Below, one piece after another: positions 2,891 through 26,875 of a stretch of 64,000 nt of DNA (its first letter is position 1; each line of letters begins with the position of its first letter). Made by a program: the position numbers and the translations under genes. The stretch is from NCBI RefSeq assembly GCF_011493005.1, contig NZ_CP049158.1, forward strand, positions 1,488,001-1,552,000. The letters are read 5' to 3'. Under the pieces are notes generated by a model. That model had not been told where the DNA came from, did not search any database, and worked only from the letters and a program-made list of their open reading frames with translations. The DNA comes from Caballeronia sp. SBC1. Its GTDB lineage: Bacteria > Pseudomonadota > Gammaproteobacteria > Burkholderiales > Burkholderiaceae.

Positions 2891-4354
2891 ATGGCTGACA
2901 CGAGTTACATGGCGCGTAAAACCGTTGCCGATATAGTCAAGAGTGCTGACGGCGGCGAGCGCCCGCTAGCGAAGACACTCGGCGCACTGAGCATCACGGC
3001 AATGGGCATTGGCGCCATTATTGGCGCGGGTATATTCGTGCTGACAGGCACGGCCGCTGCGCAGTTTGCGGGTCCGGCCATCATCCTGTCGTTCATACTG
3101 GGCGGTATTGCTTGCGCGTTTGTCGGCCTGTGTTATTCCGAACTCGCAGCCATGCTGCCCGTCTGCGGCAGCAGCTACACCTACACGTACGCCACACTAG
3201 GCGAGGTGTTCGCGTGGATCATCGGCTGGGACCTGATCCTCGAATACGCCATGCGCGCGTCCACCGTTGCGGTCGGTTGGTCGGGTTACATCGTCAGCCT
3301 GCTGCATAACGTGGGCGTCTCCATTCCGCCCCGGCTGGCAGCGGCTCCCGGCACCATGGTGAAGCTTGCCGACGGCACGTCCGTGGCGGGCATGGTCAAC
3401 CTTCCGGCCGTCTTCATCATCGCGATCCTGACGCTCATGCTGGTGATGGGGACCAAGGAGTCGGCAAGGCTCAACAATGTCATGGTCGCGATCAAGCTGT
3501 TTGTCGTGGTGGCGTTTCTCGCGCTGGGCGTGTTCTTCGTGCATCCCGCGAACTGGCATCCGTTCATTCCGGCCAACACCGGCGAGTTCGGCAACTTCGG
3601 CATGAGCGGAATCCTGCGCGGCTCCGCTGTCGTGTTCTTTGCGTTCATCGGATTCGATGCGGTATCGACCTGTGCCCAGGAAGCTAAAAAACCGCAGAGC
3701 GACATGCCGATCGGCATTCTCGGCTCACTGATAATCTGCACGGTCCTGTACATCGCGGTGGCGGGGGTGCTCACCGGACTCGTGCCTTATGGCGAATTGA
3801 ACGTGCCCGATCCTATTGCGAAGGGCGTGGACGTAATCGGCCTCACCTGGTTCTCCATCCTCATCAAGATCGGCGCGCTGACCGGCCTGACGACCGTGAT
3901 CCTCGTGCTGTTGTACGGACAGAGCCGCATCTTCTTCACGATGTCGCAGGACGGCTTGCTGCCGGGATTGTTCGCGCGGGTTCATCCGCGTCTTAAGACG
4001 CCTCACCTCAGCCAGACCATGATTGGTGTGGTCGTCGCTATCGTTGCGGCATTCACACCAATCAGCGTGCTGGGCGAGATGGTGAGCATCGGCACGCTGT
4101 TCGCCTTTGTCCTGGTCTGCGGCGCGGTGATCTATCTGCGGCGCAGCGACTCCGGTGCAAACCGGCCGTTTCGTGTGCCTGGAGTGCCGGTGGTACCCAT
4201 TCTCGGCATCCTGTTTTGCGTGCTCCTGATGACCGGCCTGCCACTCGTCACGTGGATGCGGCTCGTGATCTGGCTGGTGATCGGACTCGTGATCTACATC
4301 TCATATGGACGCAATAACTCGCTGCTGCGGCATCCGGAACGGCACGTGGGGTAA
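2891..4354 (+). CDS. APC-family amino acid permease (cationic amino acid transporter type)
   Basis: Inner-membrane amino acid permease of 487 residues with about 12 membrane helices. The first helix carries the family motif GIGAIIGAGIFVLTG, and SELAAMLPVCGSSYTYTYATLGE, IIGWDLILEYAMRAS and FFAFIGFDAVSTCAQEAKKPQ are hallmarks of the CAT/YfnA branch of the APC superfamily. I chose ATG 2891, which has GGAGG nine bases upstream, over a GTG at 2858 with no ribosome site. The substrate is probably a cationic or broad amino acid, but this is inferred from the family only. No operon partner is evident. Confidence 0.92.
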   Translation: MADTSYMARKTVADIVKSADGGERPLAKTLGALSITAMGIGAIIGAGIFVLTGTAAAQFAGPAIILSFILGGIACAFVGLCYSELAAMLPVCGSSYTYTYATLGEVFAWIIGWDLILEYAMRASTVAVGWSGYIVSLLHNVGVSIPPRLAAAPGTMVKLADGTSVAGMVNLPAVFIIAILTLMLVMGTKESARLNNVMVAIKLFVVVAFLALGVFFVHPANWHPFIPANTGEFGNFGMSGILRGSAVVFFAFIGFDAVSTCAQEAKKPQSDMPIGILGSLIICTVLYIAVAGVLTGLVPYGELNVPDPIAKGVDVIGLTWFSILIKIGALTGLTTVILVLLYGQSRIFFTMSQDGLLPGLFARVHPRLKTPHLSQTMIGVVVAIVAAFTPISVLGEMVSIGTLFAFVLVCGAVIYLRRSDSGANRPFRVPGVPVVPILGILFCVLLMTGLPLVTWMRLVIWLVIGLVIYISYGRNNSLLRHPERHVG

Positions 4355-14992: not shown

Positions 14993-17900
14993 TCAATACA
15001 CGTCCCGCACATAACGCTTGTCCCTGACCATGCCGCTGACGTATTCCCTGGCCTTGTCGTCGCTCATGCCCGCGTGCTGAGCGACGACAGACTTGAGCGC
15101 CACGTCAACGTCCTTGGCCATGCGGGCCGCGTCGCCGCAGACGTAGAAATGCGCGCCCGCTTCAAGCCATGACCACAGTTCCGCGCCATGCTCACGCATA
15201 CGATCCTGCACATAGATCTTGTCGGCCTGATCCCGCGAGAACGCGAGATCGAGACGGTTCAGCAGACCCTTGCGGCGCATCTCATCGAGCTCATCGCCGT
15301 AGTAGTAATCCGTGGCGGCATGCTGCTCGCCAAAGAACAACCAGTTGCGCCCCGTGTCGCCGCGTGCGAGGCGTTCATGCAAGAAGCCTCTGAACGGCGC
15401 CACGCCAGTGCCGGGACCGACCATGATCATGGGTGCATCGCCGCTATGGGGAAGACGGAAATGTGCCGATTTCTGGACGAACACCGGCACGGTGGCATTG
15501 CCCGCACGATCGGCCAGGAAAGTCGAGGACACGCCCTTGCGCTGACGCCGCCCGTTGTTATACCGGACCGCCGAAACCGTCAGGTGTATCTCGTCAGGGT
15601 GCGCCCTGGGACTCGATGCAATCGAATAAAGGCGCGGCTGCATGCGCTTGAGCATGCCGACCAGTTCCGTGGCTGAAAGCTCGACCGGGAATTCATGCAG
15701 CACGTCAGCCAGTTGCTGACCCCATAGCCATTTCTTCAAGTCCGCCTTGTTGTCCTCGTGGAGCAGTCTGCTTAACGTACCGCTTGCACCATTCGCACCC
15801 TCTGCACCGTTGCGTGTCCGGGCTGCGATGAACGCCAGCGCGTCGTGATTCGGGCGTGCGATTTCATAGTGCTTGCCTAGCGCGTCGGCCAGCCGCATCT
15901 CACCCGCGCCCGGCACATTGACAGCGGCATTGGCGCTAAGACCACTCAGGTCGATGAGCTCGTCGACCAGTTCGGGGCAGTTTCTGGGCCACACCCCGAG
16001 CGCATCGCCAACCTCATAATCAAGACCCGAGTCAGCGGTATCCAGCGAGAAATAACGCGTGTCCTTCGCCGCGCCATGCTTGTTGAGCCGCAGATTTTTC
16101 ACCAGCCGCGACGCCGCCGGGTGGGTCTTCGAGGGCGCGGTGCCGGGCAGCACCGCCGGAATCATGCCGTCGGCCGGGACTGCATACAGCGCCGCATCTT
16201 CTTCCTTGATACGTGCGACGATCCGCTCGAGCCAAGCATCGGCCGCGGGCTGGTACTCGGCATCGCAGTCAACCCGCTCCAGCAAACGTATCGCTCCGCG
16301 TTCCAGAAAACGGGTATCGAGCTTGCGGCCGTGACCGCAAAACGCGTCGTAGTTTCGATCGCCAAAAGCCAGCACGGCATAACGCACGCCATCCAGGCGC
16401 GGGGCGGTATCGGCACTGACCGCGGTCCAGAAACTCTCGCCGTTATCGGGGGCATCGCCGTCGCCGAACGTGCTCGTCATCAGCAGAACGTACTGCGCTT
16501 TTTGCAGGTCGGAAACCGCATAGTCGGCCATGCACGTGGTCCGTATTTCGAAGCCGGACTCCATCAACTGGGTCGCGTATCGCTCGGTCAACGATTCGAT
16601 ATTCCCCGTCTGAGAAGCCCACAACAACACGACCTTTGGCCGCGTCCGAGCAATGCGCACAGAGGACTCGGCGTGTATTGCCGCAACCGACGAGGCCAAC
16701 GTTGGCGCGCCCGTTTCCGCGCGGCTGAACAGCCCCGCGAGGACGCCATCAAGCCAAAGCCGCGTAGCAGGGGCCATGGGCGCACCCAGTGGCAGTGTAG
16801 GTACGCCACCCGTTGCCCCGCCTTCAGTCGAGCGCAGGCCGCTCATGAAGCCATCGACGTAGGTGCGTTCGGTCTGGCTAAGTTCAGGCGCCGGCGTTTT
16901 CGGAATACCGAGCAGCGTAGCAAGGGCATCAATTCGGGACATGTCCAGTTCCTGGTTCGGACGGGCGTGATCGGCAACAACGGAGTCGACGTGTTCCGAG
17001 CGGGCGGCATCGTTACGCGTCTCAGGATTCGCCGTGTCAGCTTTAGGCGCTACGCGGCTGAGCGCAACGGCGCAGAACTTGAATTCAGGCTGTTGCGATA
17101 TGGGGTCGATCGCGTCATTCGTCACGGCGTTGATGCAGAGTTCTTCGCCAAAGACGTCGTTCCAATGCATGGGGGCAAAACAATTGCCGGCACGAACGCG
17201 ATCGGTTATGACCGCAGGTAACACGGCGCGGCCACGGCGCGAACGAATCTCGACCGCATCCTTCGCCTTGATATCCAACGCCGCAGCATCTTCGGGATGA
17301 ATTTCCACGAATGGAGCAGGGTTCAGCTTGTTCAGCATGGGCACCTTGCCGGTCTTGGTCATGGTGTGCCACTGATGCTGCAACCGTCCCGTATTCAGCA
17401 CAATAGGCCGTTCACTGTCAGGCATTTCCGCAGGTGCCACATGCGGGCGAGCGAAGAAAACAGCCTTGCCGGTTGACGTAGGAAAGGCGACACGCGGGCG
17501 GCTGCCATCCGACATTTGCCTGAGCGTCTGGCTCACGCCGTCGTTGATATAACGCACCGGATTGCGATCGGCCGCAACGTCCGGCGCGCAGGGCCATTGC
17601 AATGGCGTCTCGCGCAGGCGCTCATGGCTCGCGCCGCGCAAATCGTAGCCAGTCTTGAGATTCGACGTCCGGGTGATCTCCGCGAATACCTCCTCCGCCG
17701 ATGCATAGCTGAACGCATCGGCAAAACCCATTTCACATGCCACGCGCGCAATGATTTGCCAGTCCGGCAACGCGGCGCCCGGCGGCTCGATTGCCTTTTG
17801 CGTGAGCGTCATGTTGCGCTCGGAGTTGATCATCACGCCTTCGGCCTCGGCCCACAACGCACCTGGCAGAAGGATATCGGCGTAGCGATTGGTTTCGGTA

Positions 17901-19198
17901 TCGAGGAAGGCATCCTGTGCAATGACCAGCTCCGCGGCCTGCAAGCCCGCAATCACGGTCTGCCGGTTCGCCACGCTTGCAACAGGATTAGTGCAGATGA
18001 TCCAGCACGCCTTGATCTCACCCGTCGCCATCCGCGAGAACATATCCACGGTGCCTTGCCCGAGCGAAGTCTTCAGCGTGCCCTTCGGAACTTCCCACAA
18101 GTCTTCCATGAAAGCCCGATCCTCTTCCACGAGCACCGAACGCTGGCCCGGAAGCCCGGCTCCCATGTAACCCATCTCGCGTCCGCCCATGGCATTGGGC
18201 TGCCCTGTGAGCGAGAACGGCCCGCTGCCTGGCCGGCATATCTTTCCCGTGGCAAGATGCAGGTTGCAGATGGCGTTCGTGTTCCAGGTGCCGTGCGTGC
18301 TCTGGTTGAGGCCCATGGTCCAGCAGCTCATCCACTCGGGCGCCTCGCCTATCCATTGCGCCGCGCGACGAATATCCGCTTCGGGGATGCCGGTAATCTC
18401 AGCCACCTTATCCGGCGTATAGCCTTCCAGAAAGGCGGGCATCGCGTCCCAACCCTCTGTCGATTCGGCGATGAAATCAGCATCGATATGACCGTTCTGA
18501 TGCAGCAGATACAGCAAGCCGTTCAGCAACGCGAGATCAGTGCCCGGCTTGATCTGCATGAAGAGGCTGGCCTTGTCGGCGGTCGCATTGCGCCGCGGGT
18601 CCACCACGATCAGCTTCGCACCGGCCTTCACGCGATCCATCATGCGCAGGAACAGGATCGGATGACAGTCGGCCATGTTCGCGCCGATCACAAAAAACAG
18701 GTTGGCTCGGTCAATGTCCTCATACGAACCCGGCGGCCCATCAGCGCCCAGCGAAAGTTTGTAGCCGCTGCCGGCGCTCGCCATGCAGAGCCGCGAATTG
18801 GACTCTATGTTGTTGGTGCCCACAAACCCCTTCGCGAGCTTGTTGACAAGGTACTGCGCCTCGATCGACATCTGCCCCGACACATAAAACGAAAGCGCGT
18901 CCGGGCCGTGCTCGTCGAGCAGCCCGCGCAAGCGCTGAGCCGTGTCGGAAATTGCTTGCGTCATGGGTAACGGGATCGGGTCCTGATCCCGTTCGTGGCG
19001 AATGAAGGCGCATTCCAGACGGCCCGATTTTCGCAAGACCACATGGGCCGACGAGCCCTTGGTGCAGAGGCGTCCAAAGTTGGCCGGGTGCTCCTTGTCG
19101 CCGGAGACCTTGACCACCTGTCCACTCTCGACTTGCAGGACCATGCCGCAGCCAACGCCGCAGTATGGGCACACGGCTTTTACGCTGCCGGAAATCAT
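14993..19198 (-). CDS. nasA: Assimilatory nitrate reductase fused to a CysJ-like flavoprotein reductase
   Basis: A 1401-residue cytoplasmic fusion that should reduce nitrate to nitrite with electrons taken directly from NAD(P)H. Residues 1-60 hold the [4Fe-4S] site (Cys10, 13, 17, 45); the molybdopterin guanine dinucleotide domain follows with the Mo ligand Cys near 137 in SRLCMASAGSG, up to about 770. After a linker come a CysJ-like segment (LSQTERTYVDGFMSGL), a flavodoxin FMN domain near 850-990 (WASQTGNIESLTERYA), the FAD motif RLYSIASSPR near 1186 and the nucleotide motif GPGTGVAPFRG near 1258. ATG 19198 lies 28 bp after nirD; its ribosome site is weak, suggesting coupling. It is last in the narK-nirB-nirD-nasA operon. 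Fusions of this type are annotated in other Burkholderiaceae. Confidence 0.95.
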   Translation of the reverse strand: MISGSVKAVCPYCGVGCGMVLQVESGQVVKVSGDKEHPANFGRLCTKGSSAHVVLRKSGRLECAFIRHERDQDPIPLPMTQAISDTAQRLRGLLDEHGPDALSFYVSGQMSIEAQYLVNKLAKGFVGTNNIESNSRLCMASAGSGYKLSLGADGPPGSYEDIDRANLFFVIGANMADCHPILFLRMMDRVKAGAKLIVVDPRRNATADKASLFMQIKPGTDLALLNGLLYLLHQNGHIDADFIAESTEGWDAMPAFLEGYTPDKVAEITGIPEADIRRAAQWIGEAPEWMSCWTMGLNQSTHGTWNTNAICNLHLATGKICRPGSGPFSLTGQPNAMGGREMGYMGAGLPGQRSVLVEEDRAFMEDLWEVPKGTLKTSLGQGTVDMFSRMATGEIKACWIICTNPVASVANRQTVIAGLQAAELVIAQDAFLDTETNRYADILLPGALWAEAEGVMINSERNMTLTQKAIEPPGAALPDWQIIARVACEMGFADAFSYASAEEVFAEITRTSNLKTGYDLRGASHERLRETPLQWPCAPDVAADRNPVRYINDGVSQTLRQMSDGSRPRVAFPTSTGKAVFFARPHVAPAEMPDSERPIVLNTGRLQHQWHTMTKTGKVPMLNKLNPAPFVEIHPEDAAALDIKAKDAVEIRSRRGRAVLPAVITDRVRAGNCFAPMHWNDVFGEELCINAVTNDAIDPISQQPEFKFCAVALSRVAPKADTANPETRNDAARSEHVDSVVADHARPNQELDMSRIDALATLLGIPKTPAPELSQTERTYVDGFMSGLRSTEGGATGGVPTLPLGAPMAPATRLWLDGVLAGLFSRAETGAPTLASSVAAIHAESSVRIARTRPKVVLLWASQTGNIESLTERYATQLMESGFEIRTTCMADYAVSDLQKAQYVLLMTSTFGDGDAPDNGESFWTAVSADTAPRLDGVRYAVLAFGDRNYDAFCGHGRKLDTRFLERGAIRLLERVDCDAEYQPAADAWLERIVARIKEEDAALYAVPADGMIPAVLPGTAPSKTHPAASRLVKNLRLNKHGAAKDTRYFSLDTADSGLDYEVGDALGVWPRNCPELVDELIDLSGLSANAAVNVPGAGEMRLADALGKHYEIARPNHDALAFIAARTRNGAEGANGASGTLSRLLHEDNKADLKKWLWGQQLADVLHEFPVELSATELVGMLKRMQPRLYSIASSPRAHPDEIHLTVSAVRYNNGRRQRKGVSSTFLADRAGNATVPVFVQKSAHFRLPHSGDAPMIMVGPGTGVAPFRGFLHERLARGDTGRNWLFFGEQHAATDYYYGDELDEMRRKGLLNRLDLAFSRDQADKIYVQDRMREHGAELWSWLEAGAHFYVCGDAARMAKDVDVALKSVVAQHAGMSDDKAREYVSGMVRDKRYVRDVY

Positions 19199-19226
19199 GC
19201 GAGGATCGCAAATGCGCTTACGGTGC

Positions 19227-19574
19227 TCATACTGCGACCCACACGTGGCCATCCTCCACGCGCGCGGCAAAGGCGTTGACCGAGTTCGCCGGTATCTCAA
19301 GGCACTCGCCCGTGCGAAGGTCATAGTGATGCTTGAAGATCGGCGATGCCACCACAATGCGCTCGCCCAGATTGCCGATCAGTCCGCGCGACAATACCGA
19401 TGCATGCGAGCCCGGGTCGAAGTTATCGATTGCGAACACGCTCGGGGTTCCATCGGAGAGATGGAACACGGCGACCTGCTCGCCTTTGATGAGCGCACAG
19501 ACGCCAGTGTTCGGCACGATGTCGTCGAGCGGGCACACAGGCACCCATGAGCTTGGGATTCGATCGTTGTTCAT
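19227..19574 (-). CDS. nirD: Nitrite reductase small subunit
   Basis: A 115-residue Rieske-like partner of NirB. It shows the NirD pattern WVPVCPLDDIVPNTGVCALIKGEQVAVF with a FDPGSHASVLSRGLIG core and SPIFKHHYDLRTGECLE, and it lacks the Cys pairs of true Rieske centres, as NirD does. ATG 19574 gives the usual length. It lies 43 bp after nirB and 28 bp before nasA on the same strand. It is needed with NirB for NADH-dependent nitrite reduction to ammonium. Confidence 0.94.
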   Translation of the reverse strand: MNNDRIPSSWVPVCPLDDIVPNTGVCALIKGEQVAVFHLSDGTPSVFAIDNFDPGSHASVLSRGLIGNLGERIVVASPIFKHHYDLRTGECLEIPANSVNAFAARVEDGHVWVAV

Positions 19575-22171: not shown

Positions 22172-23500
22172 TCAATTGGCAATGCTGTTGTTGATGCCCA
22201 ATGCATCCGCACGCAGCGCAGCTTCCTGTGCCTTGTGCTCGGAGCTAAAGCGCACTGCGAGTGCGCACAACGCGGACAACGTGACCAGCATCCCGAGCAT
22301 GGCGAGCGTCTGCTGAACGCTGCCGAAGCCCTTCATCAGGAAGCCGGCCGCGACTGCACCCACGTTGCCGCCCGCGCCGATAATTCCCGCCACGCCGCCG
22401 AGCGCCTTGCGGTCGATGAACGGCACGAGCGCATAGGTCGCGCCACACGCCATGTGCGTGAACAGTCCGAAACCCAGCATGGCGACCACGGCGAGCGCCG
22501 CGCTGTCCGCATGCGAGAACCAGAGAAGCCCGAGCCCTTCACCCGCGATCAGCGCGAACAGCAAGGTCGAGCGAATCTCCAGACCACGCCGCGCCGCGGC
22601 CTTGTCCGAAAGCCAGCCGCCGAGCGCGCGGGCAAACAGGGCGAGCAGTCCAAAGCTGCCGGCAGCGGCGCCGGCGGCTTTCAGCGACAGATGGAAGTGA
22701 TCGACGTAGTAGATCGCGGCGATGTTGTGGATGAACACCTCGACGCCAAAGCAAGCTGCATAGGTGACGAACAGCATCCACACGCGGTAGTTCGCACAGG
22801 CCGTGCGAAAGCTCTCCCAGCCGCCCTTCTTGCCACCGTCGATGGTGATGCCTTGCGCGCGCAATTGCGTGAAGTTGCCTTGCGGGCAGTCCTGCGTGAA
22901 ACGCCAGTAGAACCACGCCATCACCGGCATGGCCAGCCCGGGAACCACGAGCGCCAGGCGCCACGCGGACGCATCGGCGGCGCCGAGCGCGAGCATGCCT
23001 GCGAGCAGCAACGGCACCAGCATTTGCGCCGCGCCGGCTCCGGCATTGCCCCAACCCGCGCTGGTCGCGTTAGCCGTGCCGACCACGTTCGGCGCGAACA
23101 TCACCGACGTGTGGTACTGCGTAATAACGAAGCTCGCGCCCACCGCGCCAATGCCCAGGCGGCACAGCAGGAAGCTTTCATAACCGCCCGAGAGCGCCGC
23201 GCCGAACACAGGAAATGCGCCGATGATCAGCAGTCCCGTATAAACCTTTCGCGGACCGTAGCGGTCGCACATCGGGCCAATAATCAGCCTTACCAGGATC
23301 GTCGCGGCAACCGCTGCGATGTTGATATTGGCGACCTGATCGATGGACAGGCCGAACTCGCGTTTGATCAACGGCATCAACGGAGCGCATGCGAACCACG
23401 CGAAGAAGCAGACGAAGAACGCCATCCACGTGAGGTGGAAAGCCCGCATGGGCACGGTGCGCAAGCTGAAGAGATCGATCCGGGTTGCTTTGTCTGCCAT
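22172..23500 (-). CDS. narK: Nitrate/nitrite transporter, NNP family
   Basis: A 442-residue, 12-helix permease of the nitrate/nitrite porter family. FVCFFAWFACAPLMPLIKREFGLS in helix 1 and the nitrate signature GWGNAGAGAAQ in helix 5 are clear; a conserved Arg follows in LVRLIIGPMCDRYGPRK. In an assimilatory operon its role is nitrate uptake, so nasA-type transporter names are also used. ATG 23500 has GGAAAGAC upstream; the 5' leader just before it contains a terminator and ANTAR-type hairpins. Confidence 0.94.
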   Translation of the reverse strand: MADKATRIDLFSLRTVPMRAFHLTWMAFFVCFFAWFACAPLMPLIKREFGLSIDQVANINIAAVAATILVRLIIGPMCDRYGPRKVYTGLLIIGAFPVFGAALSGGYESFLLCRLGIGAVGASFVITQYHTSVMFAPNVVGTANATSAGWGNAGAGAAQMLVPLLLAGMLALGAADASAWRLALVVPGLAMPVMAWFYWRFTQDCPQGNFTQLRAQGITIDGGKKGGWESFRTACANYRVWMLFVTYAACFGVEVFIHNIAAIYYVDHFHLSLKAAGAAAGSFGLLALFARALGGWLSDKAAARRGLEIRSTLLFALIAGEGLGLLWFSHADSAALAVVAMLGFGLFTHMACGATYALVPFIDRKALGGVAGIIGAGGNVGAVAAGFLMKGFGSVQQTLAMLGMLVTLSALCALAVRFSSEHKAQEAALRADALGINNSIAN

Positions 23501-23515
23501 TGTCTTTCCAGAAAA

Positions 23516-23564
23516 CAAAAAGGCGTCCCGCAAACCCAGCCGATGGCTGAGTTCAGGGGACGCC
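23516..23564 (-). terminator. Leader intrinsic terminator ahead of narK-nirBD-nasA
   Basis: On the minus strand GGCGTCCC pairs perfectly with GGGACGCC (plus positions 23557-23564 and 23522-23529). An inner helix CAGCC-ATC-GGCTG sits between them, and a TTTTTGTTTT run follows, ending 16 bases before the narK ATG. A terminator inside the leader of an operon implies attenuation. Its left arm overlaps the second ANTAR-type hairpin, so the two structures exclude each other. Confidence 0.75.
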
Positions 23565-23589
23565 GTTGTCCAAAAAGCCCGTCATGGGC
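23558..23589 (-). promoter_or_regulatory. ANTAR-type (NasT) antitermination hairpins in the narK leader
   Basis: The second hairpin (23558-23571) reads GGAC-AACGGC-GTCC: a hexaloop with A at position 1 and G at position 4, the signature of ANTAR targets. Five bases upstream is a first hairpin, GCCC-ATGAC-GGGC (23577-23589), whose loop has five rather than six bases. The second hairpin shares bases with the terminator arm. NasT binding would hold it closed and allow read-through when nitrate releases NasT from NasS. Confidence 0.68.
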
Positions 23590-23645
23590 CGCTGCTGAAA
23601 TCTTGCAATGAAACTGGACCGCCGTTGATCCATGGGTGCTGTAAA

Positions 23646-23661
23646 TGCAAGCGCCATGCCA
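23646..23661 (-). promoter_or_regulatory. Sigma-54 promoter for narK-nirB-nirD-nasA
   Basis: The minus strand reads TGGCATG-GCGC-TTGCA, one base from the TGGCACG-N4-TTGCA consensus with exact GG/GC spacing. Transcription would start near 23635, giving a leader of about 135 nt that contains the ANTAR hairpins and the terminator. Confidence 0.7.
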
Positions 23662-23748
23662 TGCGCGACGTCTCTATATCTGGCGGGCGTTTGCCGTTGG
23701 CATCACGTTTTTCGGCCGATTACGGGCGATGCTTTTTGATGCAGCGCC

Positions 23749-23763
23749 GCACATGCACGGTGC
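23749..23763. promoter_or_regulatory. NtrC enhancer site 1
   Basis: GCAC-ATGCACG-GTGC matches the NtrC pattern GCAC-N7-GTGC perfectly. It lies about 115-130 bp upstream of the predicted narK start and about 200 bp upstream of the predicted cobA start, both within enhancer range. Confidence 0.65.
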
Positions 23764-23769
23764 GACGCA

Positions 23770-23784
23770 GCACTGTCTGCGTGC
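23770..23784. promoter_or_regulatory. NtrC enhancer site 2
   Basis: GCAC-TGTCTGC-GTGC is a second perfect GCAC-N7-GTGC. Its centre is 21 bp from that of site 1, two helical turns, so both dimers face the same side of the helix as in known tandem NtrC enhancers. Confidence 0.65.
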
Positions 23785-23939
23785 GAGCGGAACTGCACCG
23801 TGCTTGGGCTTCCCAATCTGGTACACAAGATCAAAGAGGGATTCATAAGCGGAGATGCGCATAAGGAGCGTGGCTTCGCGCGGCGGCCGCGTTGGTGTTC
23901 GCATGGTTCGTCGCCAGGCGCGCTATGGCAATACTCGTC

Positions 23940-23955
23940 TGGCCTGGATATTGCC
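23940..23955 (+). promoter_or_regulatory. Sigma-54-like promoter facing cobA-nasT-nasS
   Basis: TGGCCTG-GATA-TTGCC keeps the invariant GG and GC with correct spacing but departs from consensus at the A and C of TGGCAC. Transcription would begin near 23966 and give a leader of about 250 nt with its own ANTAR hairpin and terminator. It is weaker than the opposite promoter. Confidence 0.5.
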
Positions 23956-23988
23956 TATGCTTGACCGTGCGCGGCAACGATGTCGGGC

Positions 23989-24028
23989 GCATTGACAAAT
24001 GCATCAACGATTCAGGACAACGGCGTCC
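23989..24028 (+). promoter_or_regulatory. ANTAR-type (NasT) hairpins in the cobA leader
   Basis: GGAC-AACGGC-GTCC at 24015-24028 is identical to the second hairpin of the narK leader, on the opposite strand. A first hairpin, GCATT-GACA-AATGC (23989-24002), lies 12 bases upstream; its loop is not a classical hexaloop. The second hairpin overlaps the left arm of the terminator that follows. Confidence 0.65.
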
Positions 24029-24061
24029 CTTCGTGCAAGAGCACGAGCGGATGCCGTTTTT
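24019..24061 (+). terminator. Leader intrinsic terminator ahead of cobA
   Basis: AACGGCGTCC pairs with GGATGCCGTT (one G-U pair). An inner TTCGTGC/GCACGAG helix and an AAGA loop complete the stem, and TTTTT follows. It sits about 150 bases before the cobA ATG. Its first ten bases are the loop and 3' arm of the ANTAR hairpin, the hallmark of NasT antitermination. Confidence 0.72.
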
Positions 24062-24118
24062 CGTTGGGGCATCATGTGTTGTCGCATCGTCCGGAAGGTC
24101 ATCTGATCTGCCCGACGC

Positions 24119-24145
24119 GCGGCTCATGCGGCTCATGCGGCTCAT
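24119..24145. repeat. Three tandem copies of GCGGCTCAT
   Basis: Three exact nine-base units lie in the cobA leader, after the terminator and about 70 bases before the ATG. They do not lie in a gene. They may be a slipped-strand product or a spacing element. Confidence 0.7.
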
Positions 24146-24214
24146 TACGATCTTCGATCTTTTAAGCAACGCGGCGGCGGTTGCATTCTTGTTAAGCCGC
24201 CAAAGGACATCACA

Positions 24215-25021
24215 ATGACAACTGGCAAGGTGACCTTGCTTAGCGCCGGTCCTGGCGATCTGGACCTGCTCACGATTAAAGCCGCCAAAGCATTGGCGGG
24301 GGCGGATATCGTGCTGCTGGACGATCTCGCCAATCCCGAGATCGTGTCGCTTGCACCTCGCGCACGCGTGATCCGCGTCGGCAAGCGCGGTGGCTGCAAG
24401 TCGACACCGCAAGCGTTCATCCAGCGACTGATGCAGCGTTATGCCCTCAAGGGACTGCACGTGGTTCGCGTGAAAGGCGGCGACGCCCTGCTGTTTGGAC
24501 GTGCGGGCGAAGAGCTCACAGCGCTGCGGCACGCTCAGATTCCGGTGGAGATCATCAACGGCATTTCGTCGGGATTTGCAGCGGCCGCGAGTCTCGGGAT
24601 ATCGCTGACGCATCGGGAACACTGCCAGGGAGTGACCTTCGTCACGGCGCACAAGCAGGATCATGGCGAACCCAACTGGGCCGCTTTCGCGGCAACCGGC
24701 ACGACGCTCGCGATCTACATGGGCATGACGCGCATCGAAAGCCTCTGCCATGCGTTGCTATCGGCAATGCCGGCATCCACCCCGGCCGCAGTCGTTCAAT
24801 GGGCCGGGACAGCATCCGAGCGACGCTGGCTTGGAAAACTGGAGCACTTGGCTATTGACGCGGTGAAGGAAGGCCTGGGAAGCCCCGCCGTGATCCTCGT
24901 TGGCAATGCGATTAGCGAAGCGGTAGATTGGATGTCTCACAACGGCACTCTTGCCGTGGAAGAGCAAACCGTCTTCAACACGCGGCAAGACATCACCGAG
25001 GCGGTCCAGCATGCAGCCTGA
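24215..25021 (+). CDS. cobA: Uroporphyrinogen-III C-methyltransferase (SUMT)
   Basis: A 268-residue SAM-dependent enzyme that methylates uroporphyrinogen III to precorrin-2, the first step of siroheme synthesis. Family motifs are clear: LLSAGPGDLDLLTIKAAKAL at the start, YALKGLHVVRVKGGDALLFGRAGEE, and INGISSGFAAAASLGISLTHR. It lacks the dehydrogenase/ferrochelatase part of CysG. Siroheme is the cofactor of NirB, encoded divergently. ATG 24215 follows AAAGGACATCACA. It is probably co-transcribed with nasT and nasS, 111 bp further on. Confidence 0.95.
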   Translation: MTTGKVTLLSAGPGDLDLLTIKAAKALAGADIVLLDDLANPEIVSLAPRARVIRVGKRGGCKSTPQAFIQRLMQRYALKGLHVVRVKGGDALLFGRAGEELTALRHAQIPVEIINGISSGFAAAASLGISLTHREHCQGVTFVTAHKQDHGEPNWAAFAATGTTLAIYMGMTRIESLCHALLSAMPASTPAAVVQWAGTASERRWLGKLEHLAIDAVKEGLGSPAVILVGNAISEAVDWMSHNGTLAVEEQTVFNTRQDITEAVQHAA

Positions 25022-25717: not shown

Positions 25718-26875
25718 ATGAACACGCCCAAAGCCGCTTTGAACCGCGGCTCCAACACCCCCGAGAAGACCCACATCCGTCTTGGTTTCGTGGCGCTGAG
25801 CGATGCTGCGCCGCTCGCCGTTGCCAAGATCCTCGAGTTCGGCCACAGCCACGGCCTGACGCTCGAGCTGTGCCGGCAACCTTCCTGGGCGGCAGTGCGC
25901 GACAAGTTGTTGTCCGGCGAGATCGACGCGGCGCACGCGCTTTATGGGCTTGTGTACGGCGTGCAATTGGGCATTGGCGGACCGCAGGGCGACATGGCCG
26001 TGCTGATGGTATTGAACCGCAATGGCCAGGCCATCACGCTGTCGAACCCGCTGGCCGAAGCGTTTAACGAAAGCGGCAACTTGAAGGAGGCGCTTGCGAC
26101 GCTAGGCCGTCCTCCCGTCTTCGCACAGACCTTTCCGACCGGCACGCACGCGATGTGGTTGTACTACTGGCTCGCGGCTCTTGGCGTGCATCCGCTGCGC
26201 GACATTCGCAGTATCGTGATTCCGCCACCGCAAATGGTCGATGCGTTAGCCGAGGGCCAGCTCGACGGATTCTGCGCCGGTGAGCCGTGGAACGCGGTTG
26301 CCGAGGCGCGTCACGCGGGCAGGACCGTCGCGATCACGAGCCAGATCTGGCCGGACCACCCGGAAAAGGTGCTGGCCAGCCGGCGCGATTTTGTCGCGCG
26401 TTATCCGAACACGGCGCGCGCGCTGGTCCAGACAATGCTCGAAGCGTGCCGGTGGCTCGACGGCCCCGCGCATCGCGCCGACATCTCCACGTGGCTCGCC
26501 GCGCCGGAACTGTTAGGCGTGCCGCAGGAATTAATCGCGCCACGGCTGCTCGGCGACTATGACGCGGCGCAATTCCCCGGGCAGCCGCTTCCGCTCCCCA
26601 TCAGTTTCTTCGATAAAGGCGCCGTCAACTATCCACGGCCGTCCGATGGCTTGTGGTTCCTGACGCAATATCGCCGATGGGGTTTGCTAAGCGGCGCTCA
26701 CGACGACGCCGCCATTGCATCGGCGATCAGCCAGACGGCGCTGTATCGCGAGGCCGCCGCATTGGCGGACGTTCGCGTGCCGGACGAGATCCGCGCGGAC
26801 GTGCTGGTCGACGGGCGCGTCTGGGACGGACAAGATCCCGCGGCCTATCTCGACGGGTTCGCCATACGTGCCTGA
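25718..26875 (+). CDS. nasS: Nitrate-sensing protein NasS (NrtA/CmpA-like, cytoplasmic)
   Basis: A 385-residue protein of the NrtA/CmpA binding-protein family with no signal peptide, so it stays in the cytoplasm as the nitrate sensor that sequesters NasT. It begins IRLGFVALSDAAPLAVAKILEFGHSHGL. GTHAMWLYYWLAALGVHPLRDI and GQLDGFCAGEPWNAVAEARHAGRT are characteristic. It follows nasT by nine bases, with no transporter permease or ATPase genes nearby, which supports the sensor role over transport. Confidence 0.92.
   Translation: MNTPKAALNRGSNTPEKTHIRLGFVALSDAAPLAVAKILEFGHSHGLTLELCRQPSWAAVRDKLLSGEIDAAHALYGLVYGVQLGIGGPQGDMAVLMVLNRNGQAITLSNPLAEAFNESGNLKEALATLGRPPVFAQTFPTGTHAMWLYYWLAALGVHPLRDIRSIVIPPPQMVDALAEGQLDGFCAGEPWNAVAEARHAGRTVAITSQIWPDHPEKVLASRRDFVARYPNTARALVQTMLEACRWLDGPAHRADISTWLAAPELLGVPQELIAPRLLGDYDAAQFPGQPLPLPISFFDKGAVNYPRPSDGLWFLTQYRRWGLLSGAHDDAAIASAISQTALYREAAALADVRVPDEIRADVLVDGRVWDGQDPAAYLDGFAIRA

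What the first reader, a model, noticed from the sequence alone, without database searches (positions are those of the whole stretch)
23989..24061. A second, opposite-facing ANTAR leader before cobA-nasT-nasS
The identical 14-nt hairpin GGAC-AACGGC-GTCC is found on the other strand, again overlapping the left arm of a terminator ending in TTTTT, 150 bases before cobA. If functional, NasT would control the siroheme enzyme and also its own gene and that of its inhibitor, a feedback loop. Both leaders share the second hairpin exactly while the rest of the terminators differ, which argues for selection on the hairpin.
Basis: seen in the sequence. Interest (0 to 1): 0.75.

Follow-up and report, generated by a model that had tools for sequence, protein, structure and literature searches.

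The report
Nitrate-responsive RNA switch before cobA-nasT-nasS
In a soil bacterium of the genus Caballeronia, an RNA switch of a known type (read by the nitrate-responsive protein NasT) sits in front of the genes for a haem-like cofactor enzyme and for NasT and its inhibitor themselves, so NasT probably helps to control its own supply; no experiment has yet shown this.

Summary
The + strand leader of cobA-nasT-nasS has a sigma-54-type promoter (23940-23954, predicted start ~23966), a first hexaloop hairpin P1 (23972-23985), a 29-nt linker, P2 (24015-24028) and an intrinsic terminator that uses the 3' part of P2 (24019-24061). A tandem NtrC-like site lies between this promoter and that of narK, whose leader has the same plan. 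P2 is kept in 27 of 28 named relatives with this gene order, P1 stems covary, and NasT is the genome's only ANTAR protein. The nearest known thing is the NasT-controlled, sigma-54/NtrC-driven NalA leader of Pseudomonas. New here is a separate leader on cobA-nasT-nasS, so probable NasT/NasS feedback: nasT has no sigma-54 site of its own where cobA precedes it (0 of 47), but usually has one elsewhere (27 of 32). The leader follows cobA, not nasT, so feedback may be a by-product. Linkers of 19-73 nt break the short-spacing rule known for EutV. In 11 of 27 relatives no T-run follows the terminator stem. No expression test was possible.

The parts
23749..23784 (.). tandem NtrC-like sites GCAC-N7-GTGC (23749-23763 and 23770-23784, 21 bp apart) between the two divergent promoters
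   Evidence: sequence; a tandem pair with at most 1 mismatch in all lies in the corresponding region of 36 of 36 loci examined, window included. The NtrC assignment rests on the half-site pattern and general knowledge, not on a binding test
23940..23954 (+). sigma-54-type promoter TGGCCTGGATATTGC; predicted transcript start about 23966
   Evidence: TGGY-N7-TTGC lies within 190 nt upstream of P2 in 28 of 28 cobA leaders (window + 27 named loci), 0-6 nt from predicted start to P1 where P1 was found; of 5 further cobA leaders shown in the same call, 4 have it (L204 does not)
23972..23985 (+). P1 hairpin CGGC-AACGAT-GTCG (hexaloop A1, G4)
   Evidence: stem covariation score 0.594 vs shuffled mean 0.271, 0 of 500 shuffles as high
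23986..24014 (+). P1-P2 linker of 29 nt (19-73 nt in relatives); no significant fold of its own
24015..24028 (+). P2 hairpin GGAC-AACGGC-GTCC (antiterminator; hexaloop A1, G4)
   Evidence: matching P2 in 27 of 28 named loci with the same gene order
24019..24061 (+). intrinsic terminator; its left arm is the 3' part of P2; T-run 24057-24061
24215..25021 (+). cobA, uroporphyrinogen-III C-methyltransferase (siroheme synthesis)
   Evidence: NF004790 280 bits, cut-off 198; TIGR01469 248.7 bits, cut-off 185; PF00590
25133..25708 (+). nasT, receiver + ANTAR antiterminator, the only ANTAR protein found in the genome
   Evidence: PF03861 E 1.3e-19; 1 match in the genome at E <= 0.001; relatives with solved structures include 1s8n, 4akk (nitrate regulatory protein) and 1qo0 (AmiR)
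25718..26875 (+). nasS, NMT1-like nitrate-binding sensor, presumed inhibitor of NasT
   Evidence: PF13379 E 4.1e-88; the name rests on position beside nasT and on the literature about NasS
23647..23661 (-). sigma-54-type promoter TGGCATGGCGCTTGC of narK
   Evidence: present in 29 of 29 narK leaders examined
23615..23632 (-). P1 of the narK leader, TGGATC-AACGGC-GGTCCA
   Evidence: covariation
23558..23571 (-). P2 of the narK leader, GGAC-AACGGC-GTCC
23517..23564 (-). terminator of the narK leader, T-run at 23521-23517
22172..23500 (-). narK-type nitrate/nitrite transporter, first gene behind the other leader (nirB, nirD and a nasA-flavoprotein fusion follow)
   Evidence: TIGR00886 288.9 bits, under its cut-off of 311.7; PF07690

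Best explanation
A NasT-type (NalA-like) ANTAR antitermination leader controls the cobA-nasT-nasS transcript. Under nitrogen limitation NtrC, bound at the shared tandem site, starts transcription at about 23966 from a sigma-54 promoter (inferred from sequence). Without nitrate, NasS holds NasT and RNA polymerase stops at the terminator 24019-24061. With nitrate or nitrite, free NasT engages P1 and P2; P2 takes the bases that the terminator needs, and cobA, nasT and nasS are read (mechanism transferred from EutV, NasR and NasT studies). Siroheme synthesis thereby rises together with the siroheme-dependent NirB encoded behind the divergent, equally built narK leader. Because nasT and nasS lie behind this terminator, NasT raises both its own level and that of its inhibitor: coupled positive and negative feedback (inferred).
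For: Anatomy. Both hexaloop hairpins carry A1 and G4, the bases found important for EutV and NasR (PMC3369931, PMC3369936, passages). Conservation: P2 in 27 of 28 named loci with narK divergent and cobA before nasT; a divergent P2 pair 350-541 nt apart in 34 of 41 genomes of the genus. P1 covariation: 20 cells changed on both sides vs 8.5 in shuffles, score 0.594 vs 0.271, at most 0.226 when slid. Sigma-54-type promoter in 28 of 28, tandem NtrC-like sites in 36 of 36. NasT is the only ANTAR protein found. Five leaders in the genome at 48.5-57.6 bits, next match 18.0 (all five were in the training alignment). nasT without a sigma-54 site within 250 nt in 47 of 47 loci with cobA in front, with one in 27 of 32 others. 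In B. cenocepacia H111 an ntrC mutant lowers the uroporphyrinogen-III methyltransferase (-11.4), nasT (-8.1) and the next gene (-4.2; log2 scale by the paper's text) (PMC5491218, table passages).
Against: No transcript, binding or read-through data for this leader. 11 of 27 relatives lack a run of 4 or more T within 96 nt behind P2, and the strict scanner that demands P1, P2 and terminator reports only 14 of the 27 cobA leaders. One named relative with the same gene order (L091) has no leader. In the family sample the covariance model reports a leader before 14 of 21 cobA genes of the window's genus g1 and 12 of 22 of genus g11 (lower bounds, list cut off). C. glathei lacks cobA and leader but keeps nasTS, so feedback is dispensable. 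P1 is broken by a mismatch in 2 of 28. The 29-nt linker exceeds what EutV tolerates (PMC3369931, PMC8934654). Rfam has no hit at gathering threshold. A sigma-70 promoter before nasT was not excluded. I did not check whether B. cenocepacia H111 itself has the leader.
Confidence: 0.85

Rival explanations
1. The leader is a real NasT switch for cobA, but nasT and nasS are supplied mainly by a promoter inside or behind cobA or by terminator leak, so there is no meaningful feedback.
For: The leader tracks cobA: cobA2 on G000:C4 has its own leader and no nasT behind it; P. xenovorans has P2 and terminator before cobA while nasT lies elsewhere with its own sigma-54-type promoter and no leader; C. glathei lacks cobA and leader together. 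P. denitrificans nasTS is expressed at low level on all nitrogen sources tested (PMC5424462 passages). The graded drop cobA > nasT > next gene in the B. cenocepacia ntrC mutant allows extra promoters.
Against: No sigma-54 site within 250 nt upstream of nasT in 47 of 47 loci with cobA in front, in contrast to 27 of 32 without; nasT falls 8.1 (log2) without NtrC in B. cenocepacia.
Confidence: 0.3
2. The terminated leader RNA is itself the product: a short sigma-54-driven RNA with a NasT-binding hairpin that titrates NasT, as ANTAR-binding small RNAs do elsewhere (recalled, EutX; not looked up).
For: A short discrete RNA is predicted (about 23966-24061); five such leaders in one genome. Some relatives keep P1 and P2 although no T-run follows the stem.
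Against: P2 is tied to the terminator, and the five leaders of the genome lie in front of cobA, narK, cobA2, nirB2 and an MCP-like gene with narK2.
Confidence: 0.1
3. An ordinary constitutive terminator with a chance resemblance to the narK hairpin.
For: The 14-mer alone at 2 mismatches is not rare.
Against: P1 covariation, conservation of P2, promoter placement and the rarity of the full anatomy in shuffled windows.
Confidence: 0.03

Closest known systems
NalA leader RNA of the nirBD-PA1779-cobA operon in Pseudomonas (Romeo et al. 2012, title only; summarised in review PMC12830290 and in PMC8092218, passages read)
   Same: sigma-54/NtrC-driven leader, terminator, NasT antitermination released from NasS by nitrate; cobA under NasT control as a distal gene of the operon
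   Different: There one leader precedes nirBD...cobA. Here cobA has a separate leader, divergent from narK, and nasT-nasS follow in the same direction; P1-P2 linker 29 nt
nasA leader of Paracoccus denitrificans, NasT-NasS (PMC3795266, PMC5424462; passages read)
   Same: NasT binds the nasA leader; hairpin HI needed for expression; NtrC controls nasT
   Different: nasTS there is a separate transcript with an NtrC site; the passages I saw describe no NasT leader in front of it
AmiR/AmiC and the amidase leader of P. aeruginosa (PMC3369936, passages read)
   Same: ANTAR antiterminator and its ligand-sensing inhibitor encoded in the operon that the leader controls (the paper writes amiECBRS), so feedback through one's own leader has a precedent
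   Different: Amide, not nitrate; single leader before amiE; no divergent twin leader mentioned
EutV dual-hexaloop leaders of E. faecalis (PMC3369931, PMC8934654; passages read)
   Same: Two hexaloop hairpins with A1 and G4, P2 overlaps the terminator
   Different: Linkers of 5-12 nt; 14 nt drastically lowered induction and an added 20 nt abolished antitermination, whereas here the linker is 29 nt and 19-73 nt in relatives

Membership tests
ANTAR dual-hexaloop antitermination leader | two hairpins with hexaloops bearing A at 1 and G at 4 | tested here: met
   window. Relatives: P2 pattern in 27 of 28, P1 found in 26 of 28 cobA leaders
ANTAR dual-hexaloop antitermination leader | P2 overlaps the 5' arm of an intrinsic terminator and excludes it | tested here: met
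   for the window; no T-run in 11 of 27 relatives
ANTAR dual-hexaloop antitermination leader | genome encodes an ANTAR protein | tested here: met
   one, NasT, beside the leader
NasT-type (NalA-like) leader | sigma-54 promoter and NtrC sites in front of the leader | tested here: met
   by sequence pattern only
NasT-type (NalA-like) leader | NasT binds the leader and raises read-through in nitrate | not testable with these tools
   needs EMSA and reporter fusions
EutV-type eut leader | P1-P2 linker of 5-12 nt; longer linkers impair or abolish antitermination | tested here: not met
   29 nt here, 19-73 nt in 26 cobA leaders; therefore not filed as EutV-type

The most novel reading that the evidence does not exclude
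In the Burkholderiaceae NasT does not obey the fixed P1-P2 spacing held to be required for ANTAR antitermination. P1 is pinned to the very 5' end of a sigma-54 transcript (0-7 nt) as a landing site, P2 is pinned to the terminator, and the distance between them is free (19-73 nt, differing even between species with at least 95% identical NasT). That would favour successive hand-over or two independent dimers over simultaneous binding, in a circuit where the antiterminator, its inhibitor and a cofactor enzyme are all made through the same switch.
Probability: 0.4. Interest if true: 0.62.

Novelty: new variant of a known kind. Interest (0 to 1): 0.5.

Why it matters
It extends nitrate antitermination from the nitrate/nitrite enzymes to a separate unit for the cofactor of nitrite reductase plus the regulator pair itself. 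It also gives a natural set of strains with the feedback wiring present (Caballeronia and part of Burkholderia), absent (C. glathei, L091) or replaced by a direct sigma-54-type promoter on nasT (Paraburkholderia). The variable linkers make an open mechanistic question, how one or two ANTAR dimers use P1 and P2, directly testable with natural sequences.

Tried and rejected
A conserved third hairpin in the P1-P2 linker: 19 linkers folded (17 cobA leaders of relatives out of 27, the window's cobA leader and the window's narK leader; z from -2.3 to +1.2 against dinucleotide shuffles); not claimed. Sigma-70 promoter scan of 23400-24400: none found, not informative for sigma-54. The terminator scan tool listed neither the cobA nor the narK terminator, probably because its stem and loop limits do not fit them; the fold shows both. 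Rfam: no family hit. Leader as a recent inverted copy of the narK leader: considered; only P2 is shared exactly, while P1 stems, linkers and inner terminator stems differ, so shared constraint is the simpler reading. The four other degenerate P2 matches in the genome (three on C1, one on C2): one reaches 16.8 bits with the model and three are not among its matches at E <= 1; two lie inside ORFs on the same strand.

Limits of the tests: the rows of alignments A1-A3 were picked with the P2 pattern and with an AACG/AATG loop behind the promoter, so the invariance of those letters in them is partly by construction; the independent facts are the 27 of 28 and the stem pairing. Four of the 28 narK rows were left out of A3. 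Over the 80 named loci the scanner gave one hit outside the leaders (L075, 6872). Model R1 was trained on 20 leaders including all five of the genome, so its hits there are not independent; its value is the gap to the next match. In the family search its list was cut off and its filters are strict, so counts are lower bounds. Of the genomes places chosen by me (about one per genus) were fetched and scanned. No family tree was made.

Full report
WHAT IS THERE. The 14-mer GGACAACGGCGTCC lies exactly at 24015-24028 (+) and 23558-23571 (-) and nowhere else in the window within two mismatches. On the + strand it overlaps the left arm of a terminator: 24019-24028 pairs with 24049-24058, an inner stem follows, and T57-T61 end it. 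In isolation the terminator folds at -28.0 kcal/mol and P2 at -4.0, so P2 would need help, presumably from a protein, to win. The narK leader on the other strand has the same order: promoter 23661-23647, P1 23632-23615, P2, terminator. Between the promoters lie two GCAC-N7-GTGC sites 21 bp apart, 23749-23784.

CHANCE. A scanner for two A1/G4 hexaloop hairpins plus a terminator built on P2 finds only these two places in the window; 60 dinucleotide-shuffled windows gave a mean of 0.03 and none with two. In 41 genomes of the genus the degenerate P2 pattern gave 117 matches against 34 for the reversed control pattern, with 34 close pairs, all in the divergent orientation, 350-541 nt apart, in 34 genomes.

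RELATIVES. 80 named loci with nasT were fetched (193 found, best 80 kept). 28 of them have cobA directly before nasT and a narK match; a P2 match on the cobA side is present in 27 of 28. The exception, L091 (Burkholderia sp. Bp8963), has the promoter but no leader. In the alignment of window + 27 (rows picked with the P2 pattern, so partly by construction) the P2 left arm GGAC and loop bases A1, A2, G4 and G5 are invariant; the left arm takes no part in the terminator, so the hairpin itself seems to be selected. Loop position 3 varies; the opposite terminator base changes with it in 2 of 23 distinct rows and the pair is broken in 7. P1 stem: 90.4% of cells paired, 20 cells changed on both sides (shuffled mean 8.5), covariation score 0.594 (shuffled 0.271, sd 0.038, 0 of 500; slid at most 0.226), while two other measures did not beat the shuffles clearly (pairs with a change on both sides 4 vs 3.6; further pair types 10 vs 8.3, 52 of 500). 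The tool warns that relatedness inflates the shuffle test; the slid control keeps relatedness. In L096 and L109 the P1 stem has a mismatch. The narK P1 gives a similar picture (24 of 28 rows aligned). The strict scanner, which also demands a T-rich tail, reports 14 of the 27 cobA leaders.

PROMOTER AND ENHANCER. TGGY-N7-TTGC lies upstream of P2 in 28 of 28 cobA leaders and 29 of 29 narK leaders; predicted starts are 0-6 and 2-7 nt from P1 where P1 was found. Tandem NtrC-like sites lie between the promoters in 36 of 36 loci examined. In B. cenocepacia H111 an ntrC mutant lowers the neighbouring genes for nasA, nirD, nirB and the transporter (-6.5 to -6.8), the uroporphyrinogen-III methyltransferase (-11.4), nasT (-8.1) and the next gene (-4.2) (PMC5491218, passages only; log2 scale by its text). 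That shows NtrC-dependent transcription of a homologous gene set, not the leader's action; I did not check whether that strain has the leader.

WHO READS IT. The genome has one ANTAR protein at E <= 0.001, NasT. A covariance model of 20 leaders finds five strong leaders in it (48.5-57.6 bits; next 18.0; all five were in the training set): narK, cobA-nasTS, and three in a second cluster on contig C4 (cobA2, nirB2, and an MCP-like gene with narK2).

DOES THE LEADER BELONG TO cobA OR TO nasT? Three cases separate them. cobA2 on C4 has a leader and no nasT behind it. P. xenovorans has P2 and terminator before cobA (P1 weak, 3 bp), while its nasT lies on chromosome 2 behind its own sigma-54-type promoter without a leader. 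C. glathei lacks the leader and a close cobA (best remaining match 48% identity) and keeps nasT behind the same kind of promoter. In the family sample of 200 genomes, nasT is not directly behind cobA for 12 of 12 cobA genes of genus g20, at least 3 of which have the leader; in the window's genus g1 nasT is behind 20 of 21 cobA genes and a leader is reported for 14 of 21; in g11 nasT is behind 22 of 22 and a leader is reported for 12 of 22 (leader counts are lower bounds). So the leader is first of all a cobA element. Yet where cobA precedes nasT, nasT has no sigma-54 site within 250 nt (0 of 47), against 27 of 32 where it does not (L087 dropped, too short; the five without a site, L069, L090, L093, L098 and L105, show a nirB match upstream). 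In these species nasT probably depends on the cobA transcript, which makes feedback likely.

OTHER ARRANGEMENTS. In 18 of the 60 places fetched the scanner puts a leader behind nasT or nasTS. So NasT feedback may have arisen more than once; these cases were only scanned.

LINKER. P1-P2 linkers are 19-73 nt in 26 cobA leaders and 41-67 nt in 29 narK leaders. In eight relatives with NasT 95-98% identical to the window's (L033-L040) they are 53-73 nt, against 29 here. EutV leaders have 5-12 nt; 14 nt drastically lowered induction and an added 20 nt abolished antitermination in vitro (PMC3369931, PMC8934654; passages). The linker fold is not clearly better than shuffles. Either NasT differs, or P1 serves as a landing site at the 5' end.

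AGAINST. No expression data exist for this leader. 11 of 27 relatives, with leaders that resemble each other, have no run of four T within 96 nt behind P2 although the hairpin loops remain; how the leader works there is unexplained. Absence in L091 and C. glathei shows that it is dispensable.

KNOWN OR NEW. NasT antitermination, sigma-54/NtrC-driven leaders (NalA) and cobA under NasT as a distal gene are known in Pseudomonas (PMC12830290 and PMC8092218 passages; Romeo 2012 by title only). Feedback of an ANTAR protein through its own operon has a precedent in amiECBRS (PMC3369936 passages). ANTAR motifs in Burkholderia were reported without detail in the passage I saw (PMC3369931). A separate leader on cobA-nasT-nasS was not named in the listings and passages I saw; the searches were made, in an open-access library that lacks key papers, and supplementary tables were not seen. 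I therefore rate it a new variant of a known kind.

Noticed in passing
L143 (G000:C4:194500-206500), leaders at 4269 (+), 3745 (-), 7685 (-): Second nas-type cluster in the same genome with nirB2, nirD2, cobA2 and an MFS transporter gene, and three NasT-type leaders but no second nasT; one leader precedes a 285-aa protein with weak matches to methyl-accepting chemotaxis proteins.
   Followed up: partly
L066, L067, L068, L075, L077, L086, L088, L096, L100, L107, L109 (cobA leaders): P2 and the P1 loop are retained but no T-run follows the stem in these 11 of 27 loci; another mode of control (Rho, translation) or decay is possible.
   Followed up: partly
L183 and L187, just before nasS: Two unnamed, Pseudomonas-like genomes with a dual-hexaloop leader and terminator directly before nasS-nasT, perhaps an independent case of NasT feedback.
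   Followed up: partly
L168 (Pandoraea), L214 (unnamed G140), L171 (Trinickia): nirB-nasA-cobA-nasT-nasS in one direction behind one leader, so nasTS would be the last genes of the NasT-controlled operon.
   Followed up: partly
window 14993-19357 (-): Assimilatory nitrate reductase fused to a CysJ-like flavoprotein reductase in one 1454-aa ORF.
   Followed up: no
genomes G082, G125, G180 and G101, cobA matches: The cobA match reads through one in-frame TGA in four genomes; not examined, it may only mean that the match runs past the true stop.
   Followed up: no
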